From: Talinum fruticosum
Lineage: Eukaryota > Streptophyta > Magnoliopsida > Caryophyllales > Talinaceae
Assembly (NCBI GenBank): GCA_021018815.1
Contig: JAITYX010000021.1
Coordinates: 4,865,001-4,929,000 of the forward strand
Reading direction: 5' to 3'
Length of the DNA stretch: 64,000 nt
Part shown: positions 3,317-63,957 of the stretch, in pieces
Position numbering within the stretch: the first letter of the stretch is position 1
Layout of the letters: each line of letters opens with the position of its first letter
Notes under the pieces: model-generated
Databases searched by the model: none
Seen by the model: the letters and a program-made list of their open reading frames with translations, nothing else
What the model was told of the DNA's origin: nothing
Program-made: the position numbers and the translations under genes

Positions 3317-3324
3317 TATAAATA
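3317..3324 (+). promoter_or_regulatory. TATA box of the MIR157 transcript
   Basis: TATAAATA lies in a CT-rich context about 245 bases before the first miRNA arm. A start about 30 bases downstream (near 3350) would leave a leader of about 210 bases before the first mature arm, with both hairpins in one primary transcript. The start site is inferred from this spacing. Confidence 0.7.
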
Positions 3325-3391
3325 GGGTTCTGTAGTGCAAGTATTCACCCACAATCCACAAGAGATCCAAAAACCAAGCTAATGAGCAAGG

Positions 3392-3432
3392 AGCAAATTG
3401 CTCAACTTGCTCCGAGAGTTGAGCAATTAGCT
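3392..3432 (+). other. Extra inverted repeat in the pri-miRNA leader
   Basis: AGCAAATTGCTCAACT (3392-3407) and AGTTGAGCAATTAGCT (3417-3432) pair over 16 positions with one mismatch around a 9-base loop. It falls between the predicted transcription start and the first MIR157 hairpin. It resembles no known mature miRNA I can recall. It may only be RNA secondary structure or a duplication relic. Confidence 0.6.
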
Positions 3433-3466
3433 TCAAGGGCAGCCCTCGGGCCAGCGATCGAGCAAG

Positions 3467-3470
<4 letters not shown>

Positions 3471-3513
<43 letters not shown>
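3471..3513. repeat. (CT)n microsatellite
   Basis: About 20 CT dinucleotides lie in the leader of the MIR157 transcript. Such CT/GA tracts are common around plant core promoters and 5' leaders. Confidence 0.9.
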
Positions 3514-3514
<1 letters not shown>

Positions 3515-3540
3515 AGATTTGTATGTGAGTTTGGGGAAGA

Positions 3541-3660
3541 GGAGGCAGTGGTGAATGGAAGCTGACAGAAGATAGAGAGCACTGAGGATGATATGCATCT
3601 GGGAAATGCATTTCACTTCCTCTGTGCTCTCTATCTTCTGTCATCACCCTTCAGCCCCTC
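3541..3660 (+). ncRNA. MIR157: miR157 (miR156 family) precursor hairpin, first copy
   Basis: The 5' arm holds TGACAGAAGATAGAGAGCAC at 3563-3582, the miR157 form of the miR156/157 family. The 3' arm holds its exact complement at 3624-3643, giving a perfect 20-bp duplex closed by a short loop containing ATGCATCT and ATGCATTT. Flanking arms also pair. The family targets SPL transcription factor mRNAs and controls juvenile-to-adult phase change. Strand is fixed by the mature sequence being on the 5' arm. Precursor edges are approximate. A second copy follows 182 bases later, probably in the same transcript. Confidence 0.95.
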
Positions 3661-3719
3661 TCTCCTTTCTTTTTCTTTTTCTTTTCCATTTGTTTTCCTT
3701 TTCTTTAAAGTAGTGTGGG

Positions 3720-3845
3720 CAGTGGGGTGATGAATGCAAGTTGCTGACAGAAGATAGAGAGCACAGATGGGTGAAATGCCATGAAATTATGCATCTCATT
3801 CCCTTTGTGCTCTCTATCTTCTGTCACCACCCCTTCAACATCCAA
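3720..3845 (+). ncRNA. MIR157: miR157 (miR156 family) precursor hairpin, second copy
   Basis: The same 20-base mature sequence occurs at 3745-3764, with its perfect complement at 3807-3826. The loop differs from copy one but keeps the ATGCATCTC-type element. Flanks GGTGATGAATGCAAGTTGC and CACCACCCC resemble those of copy one, so the pair arose by tandem duplication. There is no second TATA box between the hairpins, so a shared primary transcript from 3317 is likely. This recalls the adjacent Arabidopsis MIR157A/MIR157B pair. Confidence 0.95.
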
Positions 3846-3849
3846 TCCC

Positions 3850-5356: not shown

Positions 5357-5584
5357 TTAGGCACTTGTTTGGTTGAGCAAAATTAGAATGGAATTATATT
5401 TCTCCGATTTCAAATTTCTTTTTCACTTGTTTGGTTGGGTATTTTGAAAGTTGAACTTGAAATTTACAAGTTACAAGCTTCCCTAAAAAAGGGAATTTGA
5501 ATCTTCCCCAAATAGGAGCGATCAATTTTCAATCCCTTAGGAATCAGTTTATAATTATTAAAAAACAAAAATTAGCATATCTGC

Positions 5585-5586
5585 TA

Positions 5587-5674
<88 letters not shown>

Positions 5675-5999: not shown

Positions 6000-6006
6000 G
6001 ATGATG

Positions 6007-6064
<58 letters not shown>

Positions 6065-6902: not shown

Positions 6903-6909
6903 GGAATAT

Positions 6910-6981
6910 TCCGTTGCCGGGACTCGAACCCGGGTCTCTCGGGTGAGAGCCGAGTATCCTGACCAGCTAGACTACAACGGA
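6910..6981 (-). tRNA. tRNA-Glu (CTC anticodon)
   Basis: The 72-base minus-strand sequence folds as a cloverleaf. The acceptor arm TCCGTTG pairs with CAACGGA. The D-loop region is TAGTCTAGCTGGTCAGGATA. The anticodon arm GGCTCTCACCC has CTC in the loop, and the T arm holds GGGTTCGAGTCCC. There is no intron and no encoded CCA, as in plant nuclear tRNAs. CTC decodes GAG. Internal A and B boxes are present and a T5 terminator follows. Edges are set by acceptor-stem pairing. Confidence 0.97.
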
Positions 6982-6984
6982 ATT

Positions 6985-8040: not shown

Positions 8041-8045
8041 AAACC

Positions 8046-18051: not shown

Positions 18052-21000
18052 CTAGTGGGCAACGCTTACATCCATTTTCCGTGTCTGAGAATGAAACATT
18101 TCAGCAATATCTGATGATGTACTGCAGTCTTCTGGTCTTCTATCCGAAAGACAACGGATAAATCTAGGAAATCTCATAGATATTCCCCTCGATGGATGAA
18201 CAAGCCCAACTGCAGCCTTGTGAGCAGGTGATACTGTAAGATCCGCGCCTCTTATTTCCCAAACCAATTCAGCTGAAAACCACATATCTGGAGCTTCATC
18301 GGTTCGGTAATACAGGGGCTTCTTGGACAATATCTTATCACCAGAGAAGAAGTCTTTCATCTGCTTAGGTCAAATTTTAAAGAAATGGAGGTTATAGTGA
18401 AATCTCTTATGCACGTATAGGAAAGTAATGACCAAATTTCGTGTCATACTAGTATATATCCCGTGCTTTGCAAGGGTATATGTCGAACTTTGTTTGTTTT
18501 TTGTTTTTAATTTTTAACTTGTTTTTTAATTTGTTGGATCAAACTACTAATTAAATGATAAATATTTATATGTTATTTAAGTTACTCATGTAATCATGAA
18601 ATAGTAGAAACTCCTGAGTTTTGTTTTTGATTATGATAAATTGTTATACATATGTTATGGAAAAACATTACTTTTTCTAAAATTATTTTAAGTAAATTAT
18701 TATAATACTAAATGATACTCCCTTCTTTTTACAATATGTGCCTTTAAGTAACATTTTTCATTTAGTAACATTATTTTTTTCTTATAAGAATGTTTTTATA
18801 TTAATAATAATAACTATTACTCCAATATTTTTCTTTTGATTATTGTTTTGATATTACAATTATTACTATTTTGAAGATTGTTTTATTTTTTAATATTCTA
18901 AGAATTTTAAAAGGCATGATAATAATAGTGCAATAAATGAAGTGTTATAAAAGATTTTGATGATATTCACAAAAAATAGAATGTAACAAATAGAATCAAT
19001 CAATGATGATCGATGCGCCAAGTGTCGATCTCCTAATACAAAACTCAGTTTTAAGTATATCTATAAGTGGAGAGAAATGGATTACTATGTTTTTTTCACA
19101 AAAAGAACAATAAGAACTGAAGACAGAGGGAACATCTTGTGCAAATATTTTATCTAACATCAGAAAGATGTGTTCTAGATTGTCAGCATTTTTTGGTGGA
19201 TTGTTTCGGCAGCCCGGGGGTTGTGGGATGGATGTTCACTGTCAGCTTAAACCACGCTTATGCAGCTAGCCCGCTTATGTAACCAAATATTTTAATGCAC
19301 CTTAGAAAATATTTACCCACATGGAGAAAGAAGACACTGAATTAATCATCCTATGACATGAACTAGAATTTGATGCCACAAAATTTGCACTACCACCAAA
19401 TGTGATACCAGCTACCTACCGATAAATGTACTGGACTGAACTATGTTTTTTTAGCTTAAAGTTCCTTCCAGCTGCTTACCGCTCCTTACAGCTTTACAAC
19501 CTTACACCCAAAAGGAACTAATTGTATCGTGGGTTTATATGTAAAGGACAGCCTGCCTATGTCAACCAGGAATATCCCATTTACTGCATGATTGTCCTTG
19601 TTTAAAGCTTCCTGATGGTAGTATATCATGTAATTTCATGCAAAAGAAAAAAAGTCCAGCTCTTAACCCTACAATCTTGAAGACCAATGATTTAGCATCT
19701 TATGGATATCTTTACAAGATGCAGGTGTAATTACCTCCATGTAAAAAGAATCAGAAAAACCTGACATTACACGGCATAAACTTTCATATTCCTCCGTGTC
19801 TGGATTATAGCAAGCCATGAGGAATGGACTATACCTGATAACACGAAACAAACTTATATAAATATCATATGGCTGCATTGGACCATTTATATTCTGCCTG
19901 CAGCAGTGCATCACATCAAATGCACTCCACTGTCATGGAAAATGGAAGGCCTTAGAAGTAATTGTCCTCTTAAGAAAGAATAAGGCATCATAGGAAGCTC
20001 CAGGAAGCAAAATATTACCATCCTGCCTTTCTCCCATTGCCATACCAAGCACCAATAGGGACCAAGTCAAGGGAGTCCCCTAGTCCATCCAAATAATCTC
20101 GCTTCACCTGTAAAGAGCACATTTTTGTCAGGATGGAAATATATATATTCTGATAAACAGTGGACAGGCAAAACTATTCCGATGAACACCTTTAACCATG
20201 AGTCAGCACGTTTTGAAGCACAATAGCCAGCATCCATATCTAGTGATTTAACCATAATTCCTTCGCAGGAAGATTGAAATGCATCTTCAAGGAAAGAATT
20301 TATCTTCGTCAAGGTGGCTTCACTGTCTGGATGAGCATCATCTGCTTCTATCTGAGAAACAAAAGCATATTGCCATATAACAATAACAAACAAATATCAG
20401 ATGGGATGAATATCAAAGACAGACTCACGGTTATTTGCTTTGCATACTCAAAGGATGAATATCAAAGACAGAGGACTCACGGTTATTTGCTTTGCATACT
20501 CAAAATAACCTGGCTTTTCATCCCTAAACAGATCTTTCATACCTGTGTATTTTGGAAGTAAACAAGTTGTAACATACTAATTTCCAACAAGAAATTTCTT
20601 TCCCAGAGGAAAAGAAAATGAATCAATCACAGTACAAAAGAATTTATACATTGTCTTCTTTTTCGGAGAGGGTAATCCAGCAGCCTGAACACAGAATGTA
20701 TGTCAAAGTCAGCATGAACATTAATCAGTCTAATTAGCTCATGTACGTCAGGAGACATCATTATGAATAAAATATCAAATTCAATAGCAACTCTTCAACA
20801 AAAGAAAGTGACAATCAAGCTAAGTTACTCCTGCTAGCTTGCAAACACAAAATGTTAAAAAATTGGCAGCAAAGCCAATTACCATACATGATGACATTGA
20901 AAAATTGGAGAACTGGGCGTTCAAGGTGGATTCACATGGCTCCCATGGATGTCACCCATTAATGGGAAAAAGAAAATATTGAAATTTCTGTGCAAAAATC

Positions 21001-24000
21001 CATTAAAAATTTGCAAATATACACTCATAAAACTAATTGACACTTCTAAAATTCTAATAAGCACAAAACAAAAGTAGGGGACAGAAATGAAAAAAACTAA
21101 GCAATTACATATTTTAAGATGTTGCATAGAACTGGCTGTTCAGATTAGGTATAAAGGGCTGGTAATCGCCACTGGAAGTGGATTAGGAAATATTTAGGCT
21201 TTAGGTTTTTGTAACCTTTTTTGTAGCCAATTGGATCAGAAATTTGTGTTGCTGTATACTCTTCACTATATCTTGCAAATTGGGCTCACAAGGATCCAGA
21301 AATCATATTCACTCAAGCAGCTGAACTCGACAACTCCACCACCTCTCCCGTCTCCCCCCACCAAAAAAAAAAAAAAAAAGAAAAAGTGCAGGTCTCACCT
21401 TCACTCTGGGGAGATCCACATATAGGCAAGGCAGTCTTACCTCTATAAGCAGAGAGTGACTCCAAGCAACCCACAATTTTTTTTTCCGGGGGTAGAAAAA
21501 AGGGTTTTCGTTTTTGGCAATATAACACATCTTCTGTAAGTAAGACGTTAGACAATAGTAGTTGCAGCTGAACTTCGCATAATGTTCCTTTTTTTCCCGT
21601 ATCTCTCCCTCCATCTATTCTAATAAACAAATGTCTAATATCCTTTGTCAATAGCTACACTTCTAGCTGCCAGCTGCTTATCGATTTTTTAATAGTAATC
21701 ATCAAGGTCTAACTTTCAAATATATTGACAATTGTTTTTAGCTTAGTTGACAAGGATAACATCTTAAGACATACTTCTTGTCTCCAAACCATTTCAGTGC
21801 AACTCACTTCCAATGAAATTTCATCATTTAACTTAAGTCACAAACATCTGTTGGCTTATACATGATTATCAATGCTCACAACTATCTACTTCCAAGAGTA
21901 AGAAAGGATCATATACAGCTGGCTACTATATCACATGAAAGAACTAAATGAAAATCAGAAACTTGAAAAGGCAATTATGTAGAAAGACGAGTCCGGATGC
22001 TTACTTCTCGCCATTGACAAACATGATGTCAAATGCTAGGACACAAATATCAACCTGCAATCCCCATGTAATGGGACAAAGAGAACAATCAAAAAACTAA
22101 AATACAGAGCTAAAAAATGTCTGCAGAGAAGTTAACACGTTGTCAAGCAACCTACGACACAGAAGGGCATTAGACATGTACCTTTTTCTTCCTCCCTCCC
22201 CCTCCCCCTCCCCCTCTTAGGGGGAGAAGGGGGGATTGTACAATTGAGAACATATAGAAGAACCTCCAGCATGTCGTTAAAAACATTCCCAGAAAAAGGA
22301 TTGCACACACTAAAACTTTCACATATTAAAAATATTTGAATAATACTCATACAATTAAACAATGATGAATTATAAAGATCTCAACAAGAAATATTAACAG
22401 AAATGCTAACATTAGTTATAAATTCTCAGGAACTCAATCTACAGCCAAAACTGGCATCCAACTCCTTGAAAAATGTTATGTTATATGAATCATTTAAGAC
22501 ACTATCAAACAAACGTTGAAGTGGTCTGGCATTGCAGAGCAATAATCAGTTTATATAGCTCAATAGATTTAAGTGGGAAAATAACAATGACATGTCACAT
22601 ATTTACAAACTTTTGGACCTTTGAAATATGTCCAGTTTCTAAATCTCACAGACATTGTTCAAAGCTGGAAGTCAAAAAGATTGCTGCGCAAATCACTAGG
22701 ACTAATTGAACAATGAATGCAAACTAAATTATGTCCATTAGGATAAACTTAAACAAACAGATTCTAATAACCAATGAAACTGCTAAGAGAATTCAAAAAA
22801 TGACAGCAGAAATAACCATAACATAATAGATCTGACCTTTATCCTATCCAAGGTAACCAAGGTAGTTTTGCTCCCCTCTCTCTTGTAGACAGTTCTTGAA
22901 AGGCCAAAAACTTGCCACCATTCTTGCGATCAATCCCAACAACCTGAAACATTGAATGATTCTTCACCTGAAAAGGGGGCAAGAGCAAAACAAGAAAACA
23001 TGCAAGAGCAGGGGCACATAGAGGAATAGCTTCTGGTGCATAATACTACCTCGGCATCTATAATGAAGGACACTGCAGAAGGTTTACATAGATCCTGAAC
23101 AATATGCACTAAATCTGGAAACCTTGAAGTTGTCTCATCTCCATTTCTTGAGAAGATACGTACTGACCCATCAGGGAGTTTGTGAATTTGGGCACGTTGA
23201 CCATCATACCTAGACATATGCAGACAAATTAAGCAGATATAGGAAGGTGCATCCAGGATGCCACTAGCGTTTACCACAGGGCCCCTTCCACGACATATCC
23301 TAACTTCATATTGAATCCATCAGTAACTTCACACAGAAGAAGAGTTCATACACGCAAATATTCCATGGCATTTCTTCTTTGAGCAAACATGAAGAGAACA
23401 TCAGAAGCCACATGAAAATGTCATCTTGAAGAGATCAAAAGAAAATGATTGTGCAGCCAAGGAACTCAAGCACAGCTTTTCAAATTTCCACCCCGCAGAA
23501 AATCTGAGTGAAGTATCAAAAATTTGGCTAGAAAGAAAAACAGAAGTATAGTTTTCTAATATAGCACCGATGCCACCAACCAATGTCAATTCCACTTAAG
23601 TAGAGTATGGGAAGATCCAAGTATAAGCAACCTCATCCTTGCAAACAAAGGAGCTAATTTCGGAAGACCCACTACATAGAGTAAGAATCGTCAAAAAAAT
23701 ATCTACAACAGAGTATTGCATAAGAACTTGTTTTAAAGTGCCAACTCCATACAAAATGTTATGTACAAAAAAATTGTGGACTTCTTGGAATTGGTCTCTC
23801 TATGGGCAGAAATGTTTGCAGGAGTACTCCCACCTACATTTGGATCTCCCAGACCCCATAAAAGCAGGTTCTACAATGAGTTTGTTGTTGTTGAGTTAAC
23901 ATGAGAAGGTAGGAAACAATCAGTTAGGAACGCATCAAATGATGCCACTTACTTGTACTCGCATGTGAAAGCTTTATTTTGGAACAGCTTCAATGCTTGT

Positions 24001-27000
24001 GCAACCCCATTAGTTATCCTATAAAAGAGTGAAACAAATAAATCAAAAATATGCTACATAGTAACTTAGAAAGAAAAAAAATGGTCACAAGTATCAAGAA
24101 AAGAACTTACTTTGCAAGCATGGGCCTGATAGGAATGCCTGGTACCATATTCAATGTTGTCGTCGAAAATTCTATGCCTTTGCTCATAAGAGAAGGAACC
24201 AGCAGATCCTTAATAATTAATGAGCATGATGCAGATCATTAGGTGATCAAGAAGCGTCAGCATCTTGTTAAAACTTCCTCCCATCTCAAAATCATTATCC
24301 TCTTTGACTTTTCAAAAATACTAAGAGGAGTGAGAATTGACAAACAGTATACATGGGGTGTGTAAGAAATACTACATATTCACGAAAGTCAATTTGAGGC
24401 CCAAATTAGAAATAAGAACAAGCATTCCAAGACATAGGGAGTAAAAAGCTAGCCAAACAAGGAAAAGAAATGGTTATCATGCACTGTGATTTAAACTATG
24501 TAGTTGCTCATCGTATGCACAAATTAGCCAGCTTTATAATGAACTACACCAAAAATACCCACCAAATTAGATAAACGTAACACACTTTGGATATAAAAGG
24601 ACAAACGCCACTTACCAACTCAGGAAGAACATTGTAAGCGTCAACAACAGCAGCAGAAAGGCCCTACAAGCATAAAATAATAAACGGACACACATGAGAA
24701 CAGCATAGAATTTGACAGCAAGACTTCTAGAATGAACGATTACTCCTATTTTTGTATCAAACATCAACTTCCAGAAAGAATTCAACTTCACCAATTATTT
24801 TTGGTAGAAGCATTTTGTTGCAATTAGCCAATCAAGATTATTCATTTAAAGGCCCAGACCTGAAGCAGTTCTTTTGGATTTTTTACGGCTCCTTCAACAC
24901 AAGGGAGGGAATTCAAAGCAACTGCTTGAGCCAAAGCTGGAAGAATAGTCCTCATCATGGCTCCAATGCGGAGGTTTCTCACCTGTAAACAAATGTCCAA
25001 ATTGTTAGCATGATTCACATGTGTTGACGGTCTCTATTTCAATCACCTACACCTCCAGAACCAGGAATATGAAGACTAAACAATCATGTGTTGACAGTCT
25101 CTGCGCAATCACCTCCAGTGTTAGCTCCATGAACATGCTGACTACGCCAATACAAATTAAATTCTTACCCTTACCCCGCAGACTTAGAAAAAGATGGACC
25201 TGGCCCCAAAAGGAATGTAATTCTAGTACAGGACTCCAAGGAGAGAGAATCATATTGTCAGCAAAATTCATCTCAAAACATAGAATCCCATCATAACTCA
25301 CCAAAGTTCTGACAATAAACTTCATCTCCGTCTCACGGCAAGATCGCATAAGACGCACAATCAGGCTTTTCCTCCGACCCATGCTCCCACTGCCAGTCTG
25401 TACACTGGAATTGCATTGTAAGAAAAAGAAAATGTGCAGGTTTTCAACATTTAAAAGCATTGTCAACAAAACTGCCCAGATATATAAGAAAGACTAAAGT
25501 ATGTATGAGAAAATTCAGAAGGTTTATAAAGCTTTGGTTCACAATTTCCATCGAAAAGACCAAAGAAGTTAACTTTAAATCAATATATCAGTCTCGTTGA
25601 AGGAGATAAGACAACAATTATTATCCATTAACCTAATTTCCAAGCAGACATCTCTTGAATACTGGCCATTGCTGGTATTAAACTATAGTTCAAGGATGAT
25701 GATGATCAGATTTACGAATCTTACCTAATTTTCCGAAGTGTAGCATACACATCTCGGATTAATAGTGGTGAAGGAGGAATAAGAAGTGACTGTGTTTGTC
25801 GACACTCTTGTGCAACATCACCTAAGAATGAGTATAGCACACATGACTATTGTTCACAAGAAATGTTAATGAGGAGGAACTAGTCAACATCACCTACCAA
25901 GATCACCGAAAGTGTTGTACATCTCTCTTATCTTAGCTCTGTTTGTCCCACATGCCTCTTCAATAGCAGAGGCTACCAAACTTCCACCAACGTTCAGTTG
26001 CTACACTAACATTGAGAAACAAGTTATGAATCATTTGGAATAAGCCTAAACTGTTGCTGTGCTACTGTTAAATCAACTACCCAGTGAGAGAACTCCACAG
26101 TTGCCTTAGGTAAACTACCATAAAAGAGTTTTATCAATATGTGAATATGTTAAATCACAATTGATTGGCAAAAGCCACCAAGCTGGCAGTGAGCAAAAAA
26201 ATCTGGATACTGGCTAATACAAGATATGAACTTTTACACCAAAGAGATAAAAAACCAACCATATTTTCATGGTCAGCGGCAATCTTATTTGTGCAAAGAT
26301 AGACAGCAGGTAGGACATCCTCAGGAGACAAAGCCAGCAAACTGCAATATATCATGAACAACACTCAGATTTCACTCGAAAGACAAAAGAACAGAAATAA
26401 ACAACAGATCTAGTGAAAAGCAACAAAGGTATTGGCACCGAAACAGGAGGCATAATTTTACAAATTTGGAACACATGCAACATGGCACATTACCTTCTAA
26501 ACATATTGCAAATCATAGAGGTAGCTTTTATCTTGCCCTTTTCACCTTCAACTAGGTCAAAAGTACGTGCCAGATGTAAATAAGGAGCAGGCTGACCATG
26601 CTTCCAGCAAGCTGCAGGCAGATTCCTAAAAATGAAATTGCACAGAAATAAAGTAACTATGTGTGGTGAAAAACAACGAAATTCAAAGCTAACCATGCTC
26701 AATGGGAGAATACTTCTCATGCGGTAGTGATATAAAACCATCCATAACATTATCAGATGATGATTCCAGCTCCAGTTGATAAACACGGTTAGACGGTTCA
26801 GCAGAAATTCCTTTGCCGTATGTTTTGGCACCTTCAAAGGGTTCTGATTTGATACTATTATCCATATTCTCATTATGATCAGGTTGAACAGAATTATTAT
26901 AATACATGTCCAGTGCGAGTTCAATATTTCCTCTAGCCTTTTCTATTAGTTCAGCAGCATAACTTCTTGTCGATTCACTGCTGTCATTAATGATCTGAAT

Positions 27001-28954
27001 AAACTGCTCTAATTCTTCTTGATAAGGTTTGACGGACGGAACTCCAGATAAACTCTTATCTACGGTACATTTCACAGGCAAAGGACCTGGAGTGCTTCCC
27101 TGAGAAACACTGCTGTTTTTACTGAAGAATTTTGTTATTGTAGATTGTTTAATGCCACCAGGTTCAAGATTTGAGTTAATTTTGGCCTTCTTCTTCTGCT
27201 TATTCTCAGTATGTCTCCTCCTTTTTCCAGGAGAAACACTACTCCCTACTGAATGCTTCAAAGGGGGAAATTTGGGGCTTTGACTTGGCAACAGCGACAT
27301 TTTAGGAAGGCTGCTCTCCACAGAAGGGGATTTTAGGAGTGGTGTACATTCAATTTTCGAGTTTGATTGGGATGAAGAAAGAGATTTTGCACACTGCTCA
27401 TGAAATTCAGTTTCATGTTCATAAAAATAGGATACAGCATCAACAACATTTTTACCGGATATTTTAATCAGCCCCAAAATCTGATCTTCAGAGACCCAAA
27501 TGGGCAAACAATCACGTAGCTCTTGCATAATCTCTTTTCTTTCCTTATCACTTAAGAAAGCCAAATCTTGTGGAGCAGGTTCGTGCGAAGAAGCTGATGG
27601 ACATAAAATTGGACCAGAGTCAACTATATCATCAAATTTTACATCCCTCATATCCATCTCCTCTACTCTTGATTCCAGTCCCTTATCCAATCCAATCACA
27701 GGATTATCCAAATCAGCCTTAACCTCTGCCTGGGATCCACGAAAAACCCCATTAAAAACTCCTGCTTATTTGCCATTTCATCCATCAGTCCAGCAAAATG
27801 CTTCCGTATCTTTACAGCATCTTTACTGTCCATGTTTTCGACATCAGAGCCTACCGTAGGAATTACCTTCTTTGGCTTCAAAAATTTCACATATTCTCTA
27901 AGCTCATTGTAGTTTGAATGCTCGCTGTAAGGCACGAGATGGATCTCAAAAATATCCTTGGTTCTAATAGCAAACTTGTTTTTCTTCACTTCATATGTCC
28001 ACCCGGTAGGAACAAATCCCACAACCCTTGAGTATTCCCTCTCGACCATAATTTCCTTCATCTTCACGAAATTAGGCCGAAAATACGGCCACGTTTCCCC
28101 CAATACATTCCACCCAACAACATGAACATCAGTAGCAGATTCCTCATCTGTGAAAATGTCATCATCCCCAAAACCTAACACCCGCAAAACCTCCCTTTTC
28201 CTACTGTCTACATATATTTTACGACCACAACGACGTGAAATTTCCAGCAAAATCCTCTCTTTTCCAATAACATAAGTAGCAACAAGAAACAAAACACTCT
28301 TGTCTTCAGTTCTATTATCAGCCCCAAACCCGTTTATCACACTAACTACGTATTCAATCGACTCCTCTTGCGAGGGGAACACAAATTTGGGGTCACAATA
28401 AGTGGTATCAAGAAACACAGCGTCACAACCAACAAATTCAGTCAAACAAGATTCCAATTTCATCGATTCACAGTACCTAAAATCGCCAGTATGAACAAAG
28501 CGTTCGAATTTCCCACCCCCAACGGGAATTCTAAACAAGAATTGAACAGCCCCAGGGCAATGATTAGCATCAATTAGGGTTACCTCGCAACCGTCAATGA
28601 GAACTGTCTCGTTCATCGGAAGCCCGAAGACAAGGACCGGAGGAACTCCTAGAACGTCAGTGGCAAGGCAGGCCGTGGTGTCGGAGCAGTAGATTATGCC
28701 TTGAGACCAGTTCGGGGAGAGACCGGCGTAGTGATCGGAGTGGAAGTGGGAGAGGAAGTAGGAGATGGAGAACTCGCCGGCGTTGCGGAAGCCATCGACG
28801 ATGAAGTGGGTCTTGGGGATGAGCTTGGAGAGGGGGAAATCGAAGGGGATAGGAGGGAGAGGAGAGGGAAAGGGAATGGGAGAGGAGAGAGAGGGGTATT
28901 TTTAGATTGGAGATAGAGGTCGGAGGTGGTTAGGGTTAGGGTTTTGGTTGACAT
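18052..28954 (-). CDS. LIG6: DNA ligase 6: SNM1-like metallo-beta-lactamase/beta-CASP domain fused to ATP-dependent DNA ligase
   Basis: Nuclear repair ligase, plant-specific fusion, about 1391 residues. Exons: 28954-26694, 26611-26494, 26341-26260, 26000-25898, 25821-25725, 25404-25302, 24982-24860, 24663-24616, 24208-24111, 24018-23953, 23209-23050, 22943-22837, 22054-22005, 20684-20650, 20542-20481, 20351-20190, 20107-20019, 19834-19735, 18360-18052. Nuclease part: HFHSDH (about residues 70-75), [21 protein letters not shown]. Ligase part: adenylated Lys in CEYKYDG (about 1034, codon split by an intron), FSRNGDE, DAEV, EGIMVK, WLKVKRDY. Intact frame needs one base added in 28846-28901 (likely the C4 run at 28893), a sixth T at 27742-27746, and a fifth G at 22873-22876 (coding strand). 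All junction phases then agree. Compares with Arabidopsis AT1G66730, which is linked to seed longevity. Confidence 0.95.
18449..18476 (-). mobile_element. Possible Helitron 3' terminus in the last LIG6 intron
   Basis: On the minus strand CCCTTGCAAAGCACGGG forms an imperfect hairpin (one mismatch) seven bases before a terminal CTAG followed by T. That is the layout of plant Helitron 3' ends. The matching 5' TC end was not found, so the element length is unknown. It lies in the intron between exons 18 and 19. Confidence 0.45.
18717..19132. mobile_element. Possible Stowaway-like MITE in a LIG6 intron
   Basis: The left end TACTCCCTTCTTTTTACAAT resembles Stowaway termini (CTCCCTCCGT type). AGACAGAGGGAACA at the right reads as the opposite end. 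The match between ends is short, so this is tentative. Confidence 0.35.
20429..20542 (-). repeat. 52-bp tandem duplication of an exon end and splice donor in LIG6
   Basis: The 3' end of exon 15 (GAGTATGCAAAGCAAATAACC) with its donor GTGAGTC and about 20 intronic bases is repeated directly, so identical donors lie at 20480 and 20428. The upstream one keeps the frame (AKQIT/IEADD). The second would add 52 bases and an in-frame stop after ten codons. Confidence 0.85.
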
Positions 28955-33362: not shown

Positions 33363-33860
33363 ATGGGAAACTACGCTTCATGTGCGTTGGCTGGGCAAAA
33401 CGGGAAACAGAGCAGGGCGGCGAAAGTGATCTTACCTTCCGGCGAAATCAAGCAATTCCATCAGCCCATTAAAGCTGCGGAGCTTATGCTGGAGATTCCC
33501 AATCATTTCGTAGTAAATTCCAAGTCTTTGAAGGTCGGCCGGAGATTCTCCGCCCTTAACGCTGACGAGGACATCGAAATCGCCAGTGTCTACGTCATGT
33601 TCCCGATGCAGAGAGTAAACGCTTTCGTTACCGCGGCCGATATGGGGGCCCTCTTCTTGGCGGCCAAGCGCGGGGCGGGGAAGGTCCGGGTGGTTCCGGC
33701 GTGCTCCGCCGAGGTCAGAGAGGTGGAGTCGCCTGCGAGTGAGGTGAAGCCGGATATGGAGGAGTTCTCTTCGCCGGAGTTTAGGCACCGGATGTCTGTT
33801 TGCCGGTCGAAGAAGCCCCTGCTTGAGACCATTGCGGAAGAGCCCGTTCGTTCAAGGTGA
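33363..33860 (+). CDS. PADRE (DUF4228) domain protein
   Basis: Intact single-exon gene of 165 residues. The N-terminus MGNYASC fits N-myristoylation at Gly2 with possible palmitoylation at Cys7. The PADRE signature follows: AAKVILPSGEIKQF, then AAELMLEIPNHFV, the SLKVGRRFSALNADEDIE segment, and YVMFPMQRVN. The C-terminal third is low-complexity with Glu/Ser-rich stretches and a basic SKKPLL motif. The family is plant-specific, often induced by pathogens or abiotic stress, with no known enzymatic activity. The W-box upstream agrees with stress regulation but is only suggestive. The ATG is the first after the TATA box and gives the conserved MGN start. Confidence 0.93.
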   Translation: MGNYASCALAGQNGKQSRAAKVILPSGEIKQFHQPIKAAELMLEIPNHFVVNSKSLKVGRRFSALNADEDIEIASVYVMFPMQRVNAFVTAADMGALFLAAKRGAGKVRVVPACSAEVREVESPASEVKPDMEEFSSPEFRHRMSVCRSKKPLLETIAEEPVRSR

Positions 33861-49256: not shown

Positions 49257-50737
49257 TTAATTAGCAGTGGGTTCCTCGGACGAAGCACTTCCTCCATCTG
49301 CACCTAGGTCACAACGGAGACAAGTTCGAGCCACCATGAGAGCTTTTTCATCAAAAGAAAAAAGTTTTTTAGTAAAGAATTTACCTTCACCTTCTGAAGG
49401 AGCACAAGGAGATTTCCTGTACCGTGTTTGCTGCTGCGTGGGCTGAAGTAAGAAAGACAATGTGGGATGTATCATTGAGAAAACATGCGGATTTTATAGA
49501 TTATTAAGATGCAGCATAGGCAAGCCACTCTAAGAAGTTTGGAACCCAGTTCTAAGCATACATTAATAGAGCAGAGCACCCCCTCGGGCAGCTAGAGTCA
49601 TGGTGTTAGTATCTTCGACATATAACCCAATGGCCCACCGGAAGATAGAACATTATGTGATGAATGACAAATCTGACAGTTTTGTGCTGTTCAGACTCCT
49701 GAAAACTATCGGCATTAACATACATGAGCCTCTTCACTGGGTAAATCTCTTTCAGTCAGGTGACTGGCTCCTTGAAGCAGTTCAAACGCTAAAAGCTATT
49801 CCAATCATTTGAGCCAGTCTTTTATCATAAATCACTAGCCATGTAGCGCAGGTGTAAAGCCTTCAGAATGACAATTGGATAGGAATCATTGTGCAGGGTC
49901 CATATTTAGCTTGCTAATGTTTGTTCCGAAGCAAGAAAGTATACCTAAGGCAAACTAGACCAAATCAACGCCTCAGAATCCTGCCTGAGGTAGGAGTTGG
50001 GAGGGGTGGGGCGATCAGATGTATACAGATAATTAATCAAAAACCAAATACAGCAGGTAACTAATTGCCAAACAGTTTTTCATGTGTACAAGGAGCATCA
50101 AAATTGAGTCAATCAGATGCATTTTTACAATCATTTCCTGGACAAACTCTGACATCCCACGTATAACTCCGAAAAATACCTGTAACTTAGGCCGAAGTGC
50201 TTCAAGCGGTCCTTTAGGCTTCTCTACACCTTGCTGCTCACAGCCCAGGCAAAAATGAAATTACATTAAGAGAGCCAGACAAGTTAATCTCTATTTCTCA
50301 TTTCACAGCATAAACTTAAAATGTCGGATGTATGGGATTCCGGAAGTAAGAAAATACCTTTCCGAGAGCCCAGTCGGCTGAATCAAAGTAAGCCCTTTCA
50401 TGATCCTGGCATGAAGATCAAAGCTTCAGCGGATCTCTTAATTAATCCCATTTAAGAAATCATAGCTTTAGGCCTCAAATTTTACAAACAGCCCTCAAAA
50501 ACTACAATCAACATATCTGGGCGATAAAATGAGATGGCTCATATACCTTGCAGATGAGTGGTGGTTTCTTGGGCACAATCCCACCATATTTTTTCTTTAC
50601 AATTTCTTCCTACGAGCATAAAAAGAATAGAAATCAACAATCCATAACAATCCTTGATTACACTGACAAATTTATGACATACAATGAAGTAACTCAAAGA
50701 AAAATGTGAAAAGAAATGAGACTGAGGGAAGGGGGTC

Positions 50738-50778
<41 letters not shown>

Positions 50779-50833
50779 CCTCCTGTTGAGGTGATGGCAT
50801 TGACTTTGAAGCATCTTCTTCTGCGGTTGACAT
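49257..50833 (-). CDS. Alpha-endosulfine/ARPP19-family PP2A regulator
   Basis: Six coding exons with phases that close: 50833-50780, 50609-50547, 50405-50358, 50233-50180, 49442-49385, 49303-49257. They encode 107 residues. The conserved endosulfine core is split over exons 2-5: KKKYGGIVPKKPPLI, then AYFDSADWALGK, GPLEALRPKLQPT and TRYRKSPCAP. The FDSADW motif corresponds to animal FDSGDY, whose serine is phosphorylated by Greatwall to inhibit PP2A-B55. In plants the upstream kinase is less clear. The C-terminus is short and acidic/Ser-rich. A likely 5' UTR intron uses the donor CAG/GTATGTTT at about 51137. A (GA)n tract (50741-50773) lies in intron 1. The gene is intact. Confidence 0.92.
50741..50773. 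repeat. (AG)n microsatellite
   Basis: About 16 AG units in the first coding intron of the endosulfine gene, just downstream of exon 1. Confidence 0.95.
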
Positions 50834-51139
50834 ATTGATCTGAGATCATACATTGGCGATTCCAAGTTAACAAAAAAAAAAAAAAAACGAATAAAACCAA
50901 TTAAAACAAAAATTAGAAGAAATAAACTATGACAGCAATTTCCGAAATGGGATCCATATACATTGAAGCTGAGAATCACTAGATCGCAGCAAAATTATCA
51001 GAAGGAAATCCAAACCCCAGGAAATGAAGCTCTTAAAAAAAAAAGGGCTGTTCCTTTTTACAGCGAAAGCACATTATTTGAGATCAGAAAATAAATGCAT
51101 GAAGAAAAAAAGACGAATCTGGTGAAATAAACATACCTG

Positions 51140-56103: not shown

Positions 56104-57165
56104 CTTGAAATCTAAAATTCGTTCAATATTGTGGATTCAAAGAGGGATTAATACACAAAGTAGGGTGCAAAGGATTGGCGTGGGTAGAGTTCGTTTTTGA
56201 CCCTTAGTCGTTTGAATGATCGAGAGGTTTTATTGGCTGACTTCAATGTTGACACCACTTACGAAGAAGGATGATATATGTTTGCCGCAAGTATATATGT
56301 TTAAATAGGGATATGTCTTTGTGATGTAGAATCGATGTTAAAATGAATCAATTGCGTGATTGAAGCACAAGGCTGGCTGTGCATCTAAATAAGTAGGGTG
56401 AAATGACGGTGGTCAAGACACATGAGTTAATAAAGATTAATATTAACATTAAGGGGTTTTGGTAATTCATTTTGAAAGGAACATACAAAATATAAAGTTT
56501 GATTAAAGATATAATTTCTTTTCACTCTTCAAGTGTTTGAGGTAAAAACTCTTCTCATAAACGTATTTTTAGAAATACATATATTAATAATGAAATATTA
56601 TGAGCCAAACAGAAAAAAATAGTAAAGTATGTATCAAACCAATTTTAATTGGAATAGACACTTATTATGTTAATCACTTCCATTGTACTTTGCCCTATTT
56701 GTGTATTCAAGAAATTAGCCCCGCCCCTCGAGCTTTAAATCTATTTATTCTCAATAATTCAACTTTTAAAAAACTAGCCAAAGGTGAGTTGGGATGAGGA
56801 ATTCATGCCTAGTTTTCCCTAAGCAAAAATTATTAAGAATAATAAAGCCAAAAATCGTTTTAATCAAAATCAAACCAAACTATGAACAGTACTCCTACAA
56901 CCATAGTTTCTACTGATGATCAAATATTCGTAAGGGCTCCATAGTTCATAGTATAAACTTTAGTTTTATTTTATGGTTTGAAATGATGATCGGATAGGGA
57001 TATAGAGAAAAATCAACGTTAATTTGGAGCATCCATCATGTGGGAATTTGTAATGGTAAGTATAAAGAATATTAGACAACTTTTCTCTTAAGGGTTCTAC
57101 CTCTATTATCATTAGAAAGTAAATAAAAATTTGCGAATGAGAGGATGTAAAGGTAACTCTAGACC
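56104..57165. other. Intergenic DNA
   Basis: Includes the upstream side of the S1-family gene. No other gene or clear repeat is seen. Confidence 0.4.
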
Positions 57166-58375: not shown

Positions 58376-58379
58376 CCCC

Positions 58380-58561: not shown

Positions 58562-59822
58562 ATGGAGGACGTCCTGATTCCCTTCGGAACAATGAAAGGC
58601 CACTCCGACGCCGTGACCGCCATCCAAACCCCCATTGACGACTCCTCCCGGATCATTACAGCCTCCCGAGACAAGTCCCTCATGGTGTGGGCCCTGCAGC
58701 CCTCCGCTGCCCTGGTGACCACCGAGGCGCTTCACCGGCCACTCTCACTTCGTCTCCGATGTGGCCCTCTCGTCCGACGGGCCGCTTCGCCCTCTCCGCC
58801 TCATGGGACCGCGACCTCGGGCTCTGGGACCTCTCCTCCGCCTCCACCCAGCGGTTCGTGGGACACACCAAAGACGCCCTCTCCGCGGCGTTCTCCCCGA
58901 CAACCGCCAGATCGTCTCCGGGTCACGTGATAAGTCCCTCCGCGTCTGGAACACCATCGGGGACTGCAAGTACGGCATCTCCGGCAGCGAAGAGGCCCAC
59001 TCGGACTGGGTAAGCTCAGTCCGGTTCAGCCCGGTGGAGCCGGTGGTGGTGTCCGGCTCGTGGGACAGGACGGTCCGGGTGTGGGACGTGGGCCCAGCAG
59101 GCGTGAGGCTGCTGGGGGTGATGGAGGGGCACCGGGTTTACGTGAACGCGGTGGCGGTGTCCCCGGACGGCTCCCTCTGCGCCAGCGGGGGCGGGACGGG
59201 GTGGCCATTTTGTGGGAGTTAGGGAGGGGAAGGCCCTCTATGAGATGCCCGCAGGGGGATTATACATGCGCTGTGTTTCTGCCCCTCCAGGTACTGGTTG
59301 TGCGCCGCCACTGAAGGGTCCGTGATGATATGGAATCTGGAGAATAAGAGCTTGGTTCAGGAGCTCCTTCCTGGCCTTCATGAGGTGGCGCCGCCCAGTC
59401 AGTTGGTGGAGAGGGAGAAGGATGATAAGAAGAGTGAGCGGACGCAGTTTCTCCCTCCTCCACACCCTCCTCCCATCAACAAAAATCATGTACGTGCTTC
59501 TTCTTCTTTTTTTTTTTTTTTCCATTAGAGGTTTTCCTTTTTTAATAAAAAAATTGATTTTCATACATTTGACGGTTGAAAAGATTTTACGTTGAAAATG
59601 ATTGTCCAATTAAACGAATATGATAAGACCCTCTTCAATCCCTCATTAATCTCTGCATTTGGCCATGTGAAGTTAATCAGAAATGCTTAAGATGTCTAAT
59701 TTCTATGGTGGCAGCGATTGTATTGCACAAGCATCAGCTGGAGCGGGGATGGAAACACTCTCTTCACTGGCTACACAGATGGTGTCATTCGAGTTTGGAG
59801 CACTCGTCCTGGTTATTACTAG
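58562..59822 (+). CDS. RACK1: RACK1 (receptor for activated C kinase 1), WD40 protein, two exons, six single-base indels
   Basis: Seven-bladed WD40 scaffold of the 40S ribosomal subunit and of hormone signalling. Exon 1 is 58562-59489 and exon 2 is 59715-59822, which reads [20 protein letters not shown] through VIRVW to the stop. The order of repeats is complete: [101 protein letters not shown]. Exon 1 changes frame at 58730 (extra T), 58779-58783 (extra G or C), 58895-58898 (C missing), 59187-59191, 59222-59224 and 59254-59258 (G missing in each). Corrected, exon 1 is exactly 310 codons and the protein 345 residues, slightly longer than the usual 325-330 because of an acidic, Pro-rich insert before exon 2. 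Either a recent pseudogene or badly called sequence; the other genes favour the latter. Confidence 0.9.
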
Positions 59823-60645
59823 TCTACTTCAGTTATGGACAATGGACCTCCTAAAACAAATCCAAAATCAAATAAAATCAACTTCTCTTACTTGCGTAAT
59901 ATTATTTCTGCATGCTTCCTTTTTAGAATATAAGTTTTTGATTTTATTTTCTGGCTGATTTTATAAATGAGTCGGTGGGAGAAATTGACTTCTTTCTTCC
60001 GGATTTCAAAAATAGGTAACAAATGAAATGTGAATTGTACTGGAGTAACATTAAATTCATAAGATATCTAAAAAGCTTCTTACATCATGATTTGATGATC
60101 CTGAATCTACATAACATTGTGCACCTCATGATGACTCTTCTTGAGTGTCCATGTATTCATAGTGTAATATTGGAGGGTATGAAGGTAATTTACAATGTGG
60201 CCATACAACTACTCCAACACTATGGAAATATTGATCCTTCTTTGTGTGGGTTTCTTACTTGTTTGTTTATGTTTCGATCTTTTCGTGCAAATATTGAAGA
60301 GAGAAAATGCAATAATCCAAACTCGTAACACATGTAAATACATACAATCTAACTCTCAAACTGATATTCGAGATGGGATATCCAAGCAGAATTTGTACCT
60401 ATAAAGGTTAAACTCACATCATCTTTGTGAGTGACCATGGCACAAAAACATTCATGCATTATCTTAAATCAAGGTATGTTGTATAATTCAAGGAAGGAGG
60501 CACGAATCGATGACAACTCCACTAATATCTGCTCTGGCATTAACTCTAATGTTACAGATGAAAGCAGAAATGAATGCAATCTTGTCATACTTCTATACAT
60601 AGAACTAGAAGCCTAAAACACAAACCATGGAGTCGTACTGTCCGC
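59823..60645. other. Convergent intergenic DNA
   Basis: RACK1 on plus and the Cys/His-rich gene on minus converge here. It probably holds both 3' UTRs. No other gene is recognised. Confidence 0.4.
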
Positions 60646-60650
60646 ACCAT

Positions 60651-62425
60651 TCACCAGTCATCATAAGACAGATGTGGAGAATATGTGCATCCAGGGTCAA
60701 ACGGATCTTCTGATCCACAGCAATGCCAATACTGGAAAACTTGGCCAGCGTTGGGGGTGTTCATCGTGCCCCCTTCATACACGCTCTCAAACTTCCTCTT
60801 CGTCTCTCCTGTTTGTTAAGTTAGAAGAAATTAGGATCACAGACATTCAACGGAAGCATTTGAAGTGAAACTGAGCTAGAAAACTTAAAATCAAATTATA
60901 TTTTACAGGACCTACTACAAGATAAACAAGTATACTTGGATTGGCAACAAATTGACGGTTTCAAGCTTAGCAACTCCATGCAAGACTCACTCATCAAGTC
61001 TAGACACAGAGAGAGAAATGAAGACGGAACAGAACATTTGAATCTTTGAATAAAACACAGGCCCTAGAAAACACCAGACACGGTAGTTTTTGACGAGGCT
61101 AAAAACAAATTCTTCAGCAGACCCTGTCATTATAAACTGATATTGAAAAGCATAGAAGATGATCAAAGAGCAGATCTTGCAAACACAGTAACCATACCAA
61201 TCCGAACAGAGACACTGATTACTGAGAGCCACTACCATCAATTTGAGATGCACCATAAATTATTCCCAGCATCCCTTACTGAGTAGTAAAAGCTACTCAT
61301 TCCTTTTAGTCGATCAATCAAAGATAAAGGAGCATCTGACTCCCCAGCTAGCATCATGTGCAAGTGCAATGCACACACAACAAAACTCTACCAATGTCAG
61401 CAAAGCCATGTAGCTGTACAACTTATAAGCAGTCCACCTAAGACGCAACAAAAGTTGATGACAATTGAAAAATGATGAGAAGACAACATAGTGCCACTTC
61501 AACCAAAGCACCATTACGGGTCATGCTAAACAATTAAGCTATATGTTCTATAAGGTTCTCCTGCAGTTTCCTCCAAAGAAGAAAGATTGTAACCGATAAG
61601 TTAACTCGCCATCATGACACATTTGAATTTCAAATCAAAGCCTTGAATTTAGCCTATCACTAAGCACTAAATACCACCTCCATAACTTCAGAATTCTGAA
61701 TCTGGGTGTCAGTGATACTCCATTGTGGCTAACACCTCCATTCATGATTAAGGCCTCTAATTTTATCGATGCAGCACAAACCCTACTTTCACATTCCAAC
61801 AACTACTCATATAGCTATAAAGAGACTGACATGTCCTAAAGGTTAACTCTATCATTCAACCAAGCTCTTTTTGAAATTAACGAGACCAAAATCACAATCT
61901 ATTCTTGGACTATCAACACTGTTGAGATTTTAGTTGGCATTAAACTGCTTAATTACCGGCTAACAAACGGCAAACCCACCTCCTTTTAGACAATTCATCG
62001 TTCATTAGCAATGTTTATGACGTATCGAAATCCTATTCACCAAAGTATACAGATTTCAAAGTAATTGGTGAAGTCTCTCCTAATGAATTCGTAATTCTTT
62101 AGTTGGGACAGCATAACCAAGGGGGCAATGAGAATGTAGAAGAAGGAATATTACCTCCAAAATGTGCAGTGTGAAATCGACAAGCACGAGGATGATTGAA
62201 CGCTGGATCGAACTGGGTTTTACAATTCTTGCATGTTTTCAGTGTTCCGCTTGGTTTCTCTGAACATTTGATGCTGAATTTCTTCGATTGGGGCGAAAAT
62301 TTCAGAGAATCGCGTCTCGAGCAAGATGAATCCCAGATGTGGCGGGAATGGATTTTGTGAAACGAATGGAAACACCGAATCGAAGATGCCGAAGAGGAGG
62401 AGATAGAATGCACAGGGACCAGCAT
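60651..62425 (-). CDS. Plastid-targeted small Cys/His-rich (CHORD-like) protein
   Basis: Two exons, 62425-62155 and 60808-60651, join in phase at HFGG/ETKRKFE and give 142 residues. The first about 60 residues are rich in Ser, Arg, His and Lys with few acids, typical of a chloroplast transit peptide. The mature part has a conserved metal-binding pattern: CKNCKTQF, then HPRACRFHTAHFGG, then QYWHCCGSEDPFDPGC. Spaced Cys and His residues of this kind resemble half a CHORD zinc-binding domain; that is my inference. I recall conserved unnamed plant homologues. Function is unknown. The intron is 1346 bases with no other gene. The open frame is intact. The start at 62425 is the first ATG giving a full transit peptide. 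Confidence 0.85.
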
Positions 62426-62429
62426 ATTT

Positions 62430-63470
62430 CCAAATTCTGGAAAAAAAAATGAAAAAGTGGGATGGAGTTGAATTGACCAAGGCCTCTTTCTGGTCCCTGA
62501 TTGTAGATGAAGTACTACGGTATTACCCGCTTCTTCTCCCCTGATCCAGGCATCCTAGTATCGTTTTTACCGCATTTCATCAACTTTTTTAGGCACAAAT
62601 ATTAGCTTTTTTTTTTTTTTTGGTAGGCTTAGCAAACTGGTTGTTCAGTTTATATACGGATTAGGTTAACTTTGAATCATGTCAATTAAACTTTGGTCTA
62701 ATAAAAACTTTTTATTAAAAATTTCAGGTCAGATTCAGTTTGTTTAGGATCAATTTGAGTCTTGGCTCGAGTTTAAGGTATCCGGGGCATAATTTTCCAG
62801 CAGATAACATAGTGGGGAATGAGCATAGTGGGGATTGCCTCAATGTCATCCATGTTGCTACATGTAAAATAAAAAAGGCGCAAGGAGGAAAATAATAGCC
62901 ATGTTGAATTTAAAGATTGAATCAAGGAGAAATAAAAAGATGGAGAAGATTTTTGAATTCGGATTCTTTATCAATATGAGTCTATGAAGTATGAACTAAT
63001 GTAGTATGATGCAATATAATCTTGTGTGACGCAATGGAAATGTTTTATTTTGAAAAGGCAACATGTAATATTTGAACCTACAGACATTTATTGAATAAAA
63101 AAACTTTTATCGAAAACATATAACTCCTATATTGAGGGTAATCTTATTGTTGACATGAATTACAAAGGAGAAAACTGAAACAAGGACCAGAAAATCCACA
63201 GCTATCCGTCCGAACTTCCGAACTGTTAAAGTTTCAGTTGCATCCTTAGGTATTGCCTACTCTCCTGGTCATTCAAACTTGGAAAACAAAATCAATTAAT
63301 TTAACACATTGCACCAAAAAAAAAAAAAAAAAAAAGAAGGCTCATGTAAATATCAATCAATTTTCAACAGAAAAAATATCAATAAATTTATGGATTTCTC
63401 TGCAAGTTTCATATATTTCAAAATTAGTGAGCAGGGATAACAGTGTAACCTATGCTAGTTGGCCAGATCA
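62430..63470. other. Intergenic DNA and CLPP3 3' UTR
   Basis: The upstream side of the plastid protein gene and the downstream side of CLPP3. An A-run lies at 63317-63334. No gene is seen. Confidence 0.4.
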
Positions 63471-63474
63471 GGCC

Positions 63475-63957
63475 CTATACTGAAGATGGGGTTTCTTTTT
63501 CTTGCTGTGTGCCCTTGTCGTCATCGTTCCTTTGGCCTCCGGCATATTCCTTCTGTAAGATCTTGTGTTCAGAGGGAAGGTTCTTCTTGGCTTTGCGGCT
63601 GCCTTCAATTTTCCAGAGATCCCACACCTTTGTCTTTGGAGGTGGAGTAGCATCTCCTACGGGAGCCACTAGTCCTGGCTTGCCATCGTCAATAATGGCA
63701 TCTACAAGTCCGTAGTCTTTTGCCTCCCAGGGATTCATGAAATTATCACGGTCGGTGTCTATTTCAATCTGCAGAAAATCAAAGCTAAGTCAAAGGATTG
63801 GTAGTATGTAGTCAAGGGTGGAAGAAAGGCATATGGCAGGAACACTCTTTTGATGACTAACCTGCTGCTCGGGCTTCCCTGTGACTCTAGACAAGATTTT
63901 GTTCAGCTTGACTTTGTGGTATGCCATTTCTCTTATACGTATGCTCATCTCTGTTGC
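63475..63957 (-). CDS. CLPP3: Plastid ClpP3 protease subunit, last two exons (5' end beyond the window)
   Basis: Exon 63957-63862 (ATEMSIRIREMAYHKVKLNK) and last exon 63768-63475 (IEIDTDRDNFMNPWEAKDYG onward). Both have correct GT-AG ends and join at KPEQQ/IEIDTD. FMNPWEAKDYGLVDAIID is the ClpP C-terminal block with the catalytic Asp region (DTDRDNFM). The GTPPPKTKVWDLWK-type extension with a charged tail is characteristic of the plastid ClpP3 isoform rather than bacterial ClpP1. It forms part of the chloroplast stroma Clp protease core. The Ser and His of the triad are in exons outside the window. The sequence present is intact. Compares with Arabidopsis AT1G66670. Confidence 0.93.

What the first reader, a model, noticed from the sequence alone, without database searches (positions are those of the whole stretch)
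3317..63957. Conserved gene order with Arabidopsis chromosome 1 (CLPP3-AR401-LIG6-MIR157A/B)
From right to left the window holds CLPP3, AR401, LIG6 and two tandem MIR157 hairpins. As I recall, the Arabidopsis counterparts are AT1G66670, AT1G66680, AT1G66730, AT1G66783 and AT1G66795, in the same order. Keeping a miRNA pair linked to the same protein genes over such distance suggests that the MIR157 tandem duplication predates the split, rather than arising independently.
Basis: partly seen in the sequence, partly recalled or inferred. Interest (0 to 1): 0.75.

Follow-up and report, generated by a model that had tools for sequence, protein, structure and literature searches.

The report
Conserved neighbourhood of paired MIR157 genes
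A stretch of a plant genome keeps the same protein genes beside its miR157 microRNA genes as Arabidopsis does, but the doubling of the microRNA gene here looks like a different event from the doubling in Arabidopsis.

Summary
The gene order is real. CLPP3, AR401, LIG6 and two miR157 hairpins lie in the stated order; papers give the Arabidopsis numbers of CLPP3, LIG6 and MIR157A (AR401's from a search listing, MIR157B's recalled). CLPP3 and AR401 are also close in Saponaria, Arachis and Cinchona by locus tags. This is ordinary microsynteny.

The inference about the tandem pair is not supported. A 2025 paper reports Arabidopsis MIR157A/B as one copy at the matching place in Arabis alpina, so that doubling is probably young. 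Here the hairpins lie 182 nt apart behind one TATA box and differ at 36 of 117 columns. A colinear block on contig C16 (Ks 0.57 for CLPP3, 0.74 for LIG6) carries one hairpin that pairs with the left copy in 80-99.7% of bootstraps over 14 data sets, so the local pair is probably older than that block duplication.

A third locus, on C38, lies beside DUF599 genes, as Arabidopsis MIR157C does by recall. MIR157A/B-like and MIR157C/D-like loci thus look like two old lineages. Whether this pair predates the split from Arabidopsis is open.

The parts
3317..3325 (+). TATA-box-like element, likely start of the shared primary transcript
   Evidence: only match to the TATA patterns tried in 3201-3830; a similar CTATAAATAGGG..TTCTGTAGT stretch precedes the C16 hairpin
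3562..3644 (+). MIR157 hairpin H1 (left copy)
   Evidence: pairs with the C16 hairpin
3744..3827 (+). MIR157 hairpin H2 (right copy), 182 nt downstream
   Evidence: no intact counterpart on C16
8046..11404 (-). HACL-like thiamine-diphosphate enzyme (2-hydroxyacyl-CoA lyase; name recalled)
   Evidence: TPP_enzyme N and C domains
18052..28901 (-). LIG6 (DNA ligase 6)
   Evidence: SNM1-type metallo-beta-lactamase, UBA-like and ATP-ligase N/M/C domains; homologues named DNA ligase 6
33363..33860 (+). PADRE-domain gene
   Evidence: PF14009 8.5e-35; two copies on C16
43998..47922 (+). AR401 / EEF1A lysine methyltransferase 2-like gene, 7 exon-like pieces
   Evidence: homologues
50174..50845 (-). endosulfine (ENSA/ARPP19)-like gene
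   Evidence: PF04667 6.7e-7 on a 33-aa piece, 29.7 bits against a cutoff of 29.8; two neighbouring pieces gave no match; colinear match on C16
52356..54656 (-). PPR protein gene
   Evidence: PPR_2 3.5e-30 for 52359-53612; the rest by open frame
58562..59798 (+). RACK1-like gene, broken by several frame changes
   Evidence: the inner frame changes read by eye
63475..64000 (-). 3' part of CLPP3; the gene continues to about 67.1 kb (about C21:4932100)
   Evidence: PF00574

Best explanation
The window is a segment of a Caryophyllales-like plant genome that keeps the eudicot neighbourhood of the Arabidopsis MIR157A/B locus: MIR157-LIG6-(PADRE)-AR401-CLPP3. Its two hairpins most likely form one dicistronic primary transcript, read rightwards from the TATA box at 3317 (inferred). 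DCL1 would cut miR157 from each hairpin, and AGO1 would use it against SPL messages, as for the family elsewhere (inferred from the family). The local tandem duplication probably happened before the block was duplicated onto C16, where the right copy was lost. The Arabidopsis MIR157A/B tandem is probably a separate, younger event. The C38 MIR157 gene probably belongs to the other old lineage, that of Arabidopsis MIR157C/D.
For: Gene content and order. C16 block: five shared elements (MIR157, LIG6, PADRE, endosulfine, CLPP3) in the same order and orientation (endosulfine named; repeat-like matches left out). Quartet H1, H2, C16, C38: H1+C16 is best in 89.5-96.9% of bootstraps over 12 alignment settings, 99.7% with long flanks and 80.4% hairpin-only; H1+H2 0-4.5%. 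H2 is hardly further from C38 than H1 is (33 of 114 against 31 of 114), so a long H2 branch does not explain it. A promoter stretch is shared with C16. C38 has DUF599 genes beside its MIR157 and no LIG6/AR401/CLPP3 match in the 40 kb read, 35 kb of it on one side. Arabis alpina single copy: PMC12404414. Linkage elsewhere.
Against: The hairpins are short. In one search hairpin-only site patterns favour H1+C16 by only 3 to 1 and 2 (61.9% of bootstraps). In the 6-row tree only the H1+C16 fork comes near support (89/93), and an H1+H2 clade is not rejected (AU p = 0.057). An earlier 10-row tree did not group H1 with C16 (holding them together not rejected, p = 0.226), on an alignment that I judged wrong around C16. 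PADRE lies between LIG6 and AR401 here but has AT1G66480 in Arabidopsis, outside CLPP3-LIG6. Five of nine assemblies with comparable tags do not show CLPP3 and AR401 linked (by eye). The Arabis state could be a loss. One guide RNA served MIR157A and B in PMC12404414, but another served C and D, so that is weak evidence of recency. DUF599 = AT3G18215 beside MIR157C is recalled; only co-occurrence of the two terms in one paper was seen (listing). LIG6's best named homologue is from Quercus, not Caryophyllales. No small-RNA or transcript data.
Confidence: 0.7

Rival explanations
1. One reading: one ancient MIR157 tandem pair, older than the split of the two lineages, survives both here and as Arabidopsis MIR157A/B.
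For: The pair sits at the same syntenic place, and here it is probably older than the block duplication.
Against: Single copy in Arabis alpina. H1 and H2 differ at 36 of 117 columns, while Arabidopsis A and B are recalled as nearly identical and further apart (AGI 66783 and 66795, the latter recalled).
Confidence: 0.1
2. The window pair arose after the C21/C16 block duplication, and H2 has simply evolved fast.
For: C16 carries only one intact hairpin; the AU test does not reject an H1+H2 clade (p = 0.057).
Against: With C38 as outgroup H2 is not markedly faster (33 of 114 against 31 of 114 for H1 and 37 of 121 for C16); H1+H2 wins 0-4.5% of bootstraps. A 13-nt piece of the H2 3' arm lies 413 nt past the start of the C16 miRNA; 4 of 2000 shuffles reach 13, though a Smith-Waterman test was weak (1 of 40 shuffles as high).
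Confidence: 0.12
3. The pair predates the Caryophyllales-Brassicaceae split; Arabidopsis first lost one copy and later re-duplicated the other.
For: Not excluded: with recalled Arabidopsis hairpins, holding H2 with At157a costs no likelihood (AU p = 0.479).
Confidence: 0.2

Closest known systems
Arabidopsis MIR157A/MIR157B (AT1G66783 / AT1G66795, the second recalled)
   Same: mature miR157; neighbours LIG6, AR401, CLPP3 in the same order (AR401 by listing)
   Different: there the copies are separate genes, single in Arabis alpina; here a 182-nt pair with diverged loops and intervening genes
Arabidopsis MIR157C/MIR157D (AT3G18217 / AT1G48742)
   Same: same mature family; matches the C38 locus by its DUF599 neighbour (the Arabidopsis neighbourhood is recalled)
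   Different: no LIG6, AR401 or CLPP3 match beside the C38 gene in the 40 kb read
Close-set miR156 arrays: tomato chromosome 8 sub-cluster (PMC9569937, passages); maize Corngrass1 tandem miRNA (title in a reference list)
   Same: several hairpins within a short stretch; for tomato suggested to be one polycistronic transcript
   Different: miR156, not miR157; their genomic places were not compared with this one

Membership tests
MIR156/MIR157 precursor (Rfam RF00073) | exact mature miR157 on the 5' arm of a stable hairpin | tested here: met
MIR156/MIR157 precursor (Rfam RF00073) | Rfam gathering score (62 bits) | tested here: not met
   42.3-48.6 bits; E 5e-8 to 2.6e-6; the call as miR157 rests on the exact 20-mer and fold, not on Rfam's threshold
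MIR156/MIR157 precursor (Rfam RF00073) | cloned 20-21 nt product with precise ends | not testable with these tools
   no small-RNA reads
Orthologue of the Arabidopsis MIR157A/B locus | LIG6, AR401 and CLPP3 as neighbours in this order | tested here: met
   AR401's Arabidopsis number by listing only
Orthologue of the Arabidopsis MIR157A/B locus | same tandem duplication event | tested here: inconclusive
   evidence points against; no tree by position across species could be made
MIR157C/D locus (for C38) | DUF599 gene beside MIR157 | tested here: met
   PF04654 6.2e-55 on C38; that Arabidopsis has this neighbour is recalled, with a listing co-occurrence

The most novel reading that the evidence does not exclude
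All Arabidopsis MIR157 genes come from one ancestral block in which MIR157 lay near RACK1. That block was duplicated at or before the core-eudicot hexaploidy into a LIG6-side lineage (this window, C16, MIR157A/B), where RACK1 decayed, and a DUF599-side lineage (C38, MIR157C/D), where Arabidopsis keeps RACK1B and RACK1C nearby. The two lineages have been kept apart ever since, so their division of labour may be a shared eudicot trait.
Probability: 0.3. Interest if true: 0.45.

Novelty: new member of a known kind. Interest (0 to 1): 0.3.

Why it matters
Synteny tells MIR157 genes apart where the nearly identical hairpins cannot. A flank-based naming (LIG6 side against DUF599 side) would let the different roles reported for Arabidopsis and Arabis MIR157A and MIR157C/D (PMC12404414, passages) be tested in crops such as spinach, beet and quinoa. 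It also shows why a tandem pair at the same place in two species is not proof of one event.

Tried and rejected
Motif reading of loops: I first took H1 (GCACTGAGGATGA) as MIR157C-like and H2 (GCACAGATG) as MIR157A-like and expected reciprocal loss. The DUF599 neighbour of C38 argues that C38, not H1, is the MIR157C counterpart, so I dropped loop motifs as a guide.

First hairpin tree: 10 rows with four MIR156 outgroups; C16 was misaligned before the 3' arm and nothing among the miR157 rows resolved, so it was replaced. In the six-row tree the two arms were joined by hand and the At157c row fits roughly at the join. Remnant of H2 on C16: suggestive only. Printed precursors of other species: two searches listed 1 and 6 papers (the jute paper in both); the four that I looked into showed only mature-length strings, and the two others (pomegranate, blueberry) were not opened. 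Pattern scans of viral and prokaryote contigs gave one match each, taken as chance and not read. Of the 20 MIR156/157-like matches in the genome, six lie in the miR157 loci; of the other 14 I checked six: four fold as MIR156, two do not. Eight further TGACAGAAGAGAGAGAGCAC places were not checked. C16 matches that I took for repeats or chance and left out of the colinearity count lie at window 1.5, 5.4-6.2, 23.6, 32, 36.6, 42.1-43.2 and 57.2 kb, at 67.4-68.6 kb past the window, and in the reverse-transcriptase stretch upstream.
Full report
What is there. The window is G000:C21:4865001-4929000 of a 620-Mb plant genome in 264 contigs. Among named homologues, those of its AR401 are nearest to Chenopodium, Silene, Gypsophila and Saponaria (79-81%), and those of its CLPP3 to Bienertia, Amaranthus and Spinacia (78-79%). 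The first exon of LIG6 has Quercus as its best named hit (72% over 90%) and a Nepenthes protein at 78% over 60%. So it is most likely a Caryophyllales genome (inference). The miR157 20-mer occurs 4 times in the window, twice per hairpin because each 3' arm is its exact reverse complement; none of 100 shuffles held one. The genome holds exact copies at only two other places, on C16 and C38. The hairpins fold stably. They score 42-49 bits with Rfam MIR156, under the gathering score of 62 but at E below 1e-5. The only TATA-like match in 3201-3830 is at 3317, before the left hairpin.

Protein genes. On the - strand: HACL (TPP enzyme domains), LIG6, an endosulfine gene (a hair under Pfam's cutoff), a PPR gene and an S1-family gene, and CLPP3, whose 5' part lies in the next 3 kb outside the window. 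On the + strand: a PADRE gene, AR401 in seven exon-like pieces, and a RACK1-like gene that is 49% and 53% identical to a recalled RACK1A over its two longest pieces, which lie in different frames, and 78% over a 27-residue last piece; further frame changes inside it I read by eye.

Arabidopsis numbers. From passages of papers: CLPP3 At1g66670 (PMC6508832); LIG6 AT1G66730 and Plastid movement impaired 2, a PADRE protein, AT1G66480 (PMC10293835); MIR157A AT1G66783 and MIR157C AT3G18217 (PMC8270478); MIR157D AT1G48742 (PMC3981707); RACK1B At1g48630 and RACK1C At3g18130 (PMC2577656). AR401 with AT1G66680 was seen only as co-occurrence in a listing. AT1G66795 for MIR157B is recalled. AGI numbers run along the chromosome (established knowledge), so the order CLPP3-AR401-LIG6-MIR157A agrees. 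PADRE does not fit: it lies between LIG6 and AR401 here, but AT1G66480 lies outside CLPP3.

Order in other plants. The AR401 list shows the best 120 of 521 hits, the CLPP3 list the best 120 of 8000. By eye, nine locus-tag prefixes occur in both. Three are close: Saponaria RND81_10G120400/10G119800, Arachis HN51_005689/005688, Cinchona ACH5RR_011656/011648. One is on a contig of equal length but 168 tags apart (Liquidambar). Five are not linked or lie on other contigs (Gypsophila, Craigia, Rhamnella, Protea, Escallonia). Without comparable tags, hits of at least seven more species name contigs of equal length in both lists (Ancistrocladus, Fagus, Sarracenia, Malania, Momordica, Abrus, Glycine) and others do not (for example Bertholletia, Cornus, Diospyros, Quillaja, Tripterygium, Coffea); I did not count these fully. 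In Escallonia herrerae LIG6 (RJ639_010360) and a predicted protein that merges PADRE with AR401 (RJ639_010365) are five tags apart on a contig of equal length, which supports LIG6-PADRE-AR401 as an old order.

A second copy inside this genome. In 200 kb of C16 the window's MIR157, first LIG6 exons, PADRE (two copies), endosulfine gene and CLPP3 recur in the same order and orientation; other matches there I took for repeats or chance and left out. HACL, PPR, AR401 and RACK1 gave no match at E 1e-4 (AR401 at E up to 10 only a chance-level hit; RACK1 none at 1e-3). The ligase half of LIG6 is missing or decayed. Ks by a script of mine is 0.74 (LIG6, 384 codons), 0.57 (CLPP3, 204 codons in three exons), 1.36 (PADRE, 158 codons) and saturated for the second PADRE. 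This looks like a lineage's own genome or segment duplication (inference).

Age of the tandem pair. C16 carries one intact hairpin with a similar promoter stretch. With flanks, H1 and C16 differ at 17 of 116 columns, H1 and H2 at 36 of 117, H2 and C16 at 37 of 116; against C38 the differences are 31 of 114 (H1), 33 of 114 (H2) and 37 of 121 (C16). The four-point sums are 50 for H1C16|H2C38 against 68 and 73, best in 99.7% of 2000 bootstraps; hairpin-only 80.4%. By informative site patterns the counts are 8, 2, 2 with flanks (96.1%) and 3, 1, 2 hairpin-only (61.9%). Over 12 settings of flank and aligner the four-point value is 89.5-96.9%, and H1+H2 never exceeds 4.5%. So the pair is probably older than the block duplication, and C16 lost the right copy. 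A 13-nt remnant of the right copy's 3' arm may lie 413 nt downstream on C16 (4 of 2000 shuffles reach 13; Smith-Waterman 1 of 40 as high). Against: the AU test does not reject H1+H2 (p = 0.057), and the first tree did not group H1 with C16.

Two old MIR157 loci. C38 has no LIG6, AR401, PADRE or CLPP3 match in the 40 kb read, of which about 35 kb lie downstream of its MIR157 and 5 kb upstream. It has DUF599 domains (6.2e-55, 1.7e-8, 3.9e-9) in what I read as two genes about 4.5-11 kb downstream, and a poly(A) polymerase gene. I recall AT3G18215, a DUF599 gene, beside MIR157C; one paper holds both terms (listing only, PMC4222868). C38 is then the MIR157C/D counterpart, and the window and C16 the MIR157A/B counterpart. 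RACK1B and RACK1C bear numbers near MIR157D and MIR157C, so the broken RACK1-like gene here hints that the two loci once were copies of one block. That is the boldest reading and untested: the genome search did not answer when I tried to look for paralogues of PADRE, LIG6 and DUF599, and RACK1 was not asked for.

The Arabidopsis pair. [quoted passage not shown] The simplest reading is a young duplication in the Arabidopsis line, though the authors allow duplications or losses. The same paper used one guide RNA for A and B, but also one for C and D, so the guide says little about recency. Sharing a place is therefore not sharing an event. Whether the window pair itself predates the split stays open, because no hairpin of a third plant lineage could be read.

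How it works. By the family's known biology (PMC5929574, passages: miR156/miR157 repress SPL transcription factors and are loaded onto AGO1), each hairpin should yield the same miR157. Two hairpins in one transcript would raise dose without a second promoter. Transcription from 3317, the dicistronic unit and DCL1 processing are inferred; no reads were at hand.

Verdict. The synteny is real and ordinary. The useful residue is a flank-based sorting of MIR157 genes into two old lineages and an order of events for the local pair. In three searches for MIR156/157 duplication, synteny and clusters (17, 4 and 18 papers listed) I saw no title or passage describing this locus in Caryophyllales; most of these papers were seen as listing only.

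Noticed in passing
window 3562-3644 and 3744-3827: Both 3' arms are exact 20-nt reverse complements of miR157, so either strand would fold with miR157 on its 5' arm; the C16 and C38 hairpins are not exact palindromes.
   Followed up: partly
window 58562-59798: RACK1-like gene with several frame changes: decayed gene or assembly indels in a GC-rich stretch.
   Followed up: partly
window about 28900: The start of LIG6 (MSTKTLTL...) and the metallo-beta-lactamase part lie in different frames, perhaps one indel (by eye).
   Followed up: no
C16:7680258-7682984 (L022): The C16 copy of LIG6 keeps the SNM1-type half; traces of the next exons hold an in-frame stop and the ligase part is not found.
   Followed up: partly
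window 55720-56136: Self-incompatibility S1 family protein (PF05938, 1.7e-20) in the middle of the block.
   Followed up: no
window 6908-6982: tRNA-Glu(CTC) on the - strand between MIR157 and HACL.
   Followed up: no
window 60654-62554: Two-exon gene (KTCKNCKTQFDP...QYWHCCGSEDPFDPGC, spliced by eye) with no Pfam match.
   Followed up: partly
window 36984-37602: GC-rich stretch open in several frames on both strands, over 200 aa in two frames of the - strand and 167 aa on the + strand.
   Followed up: no
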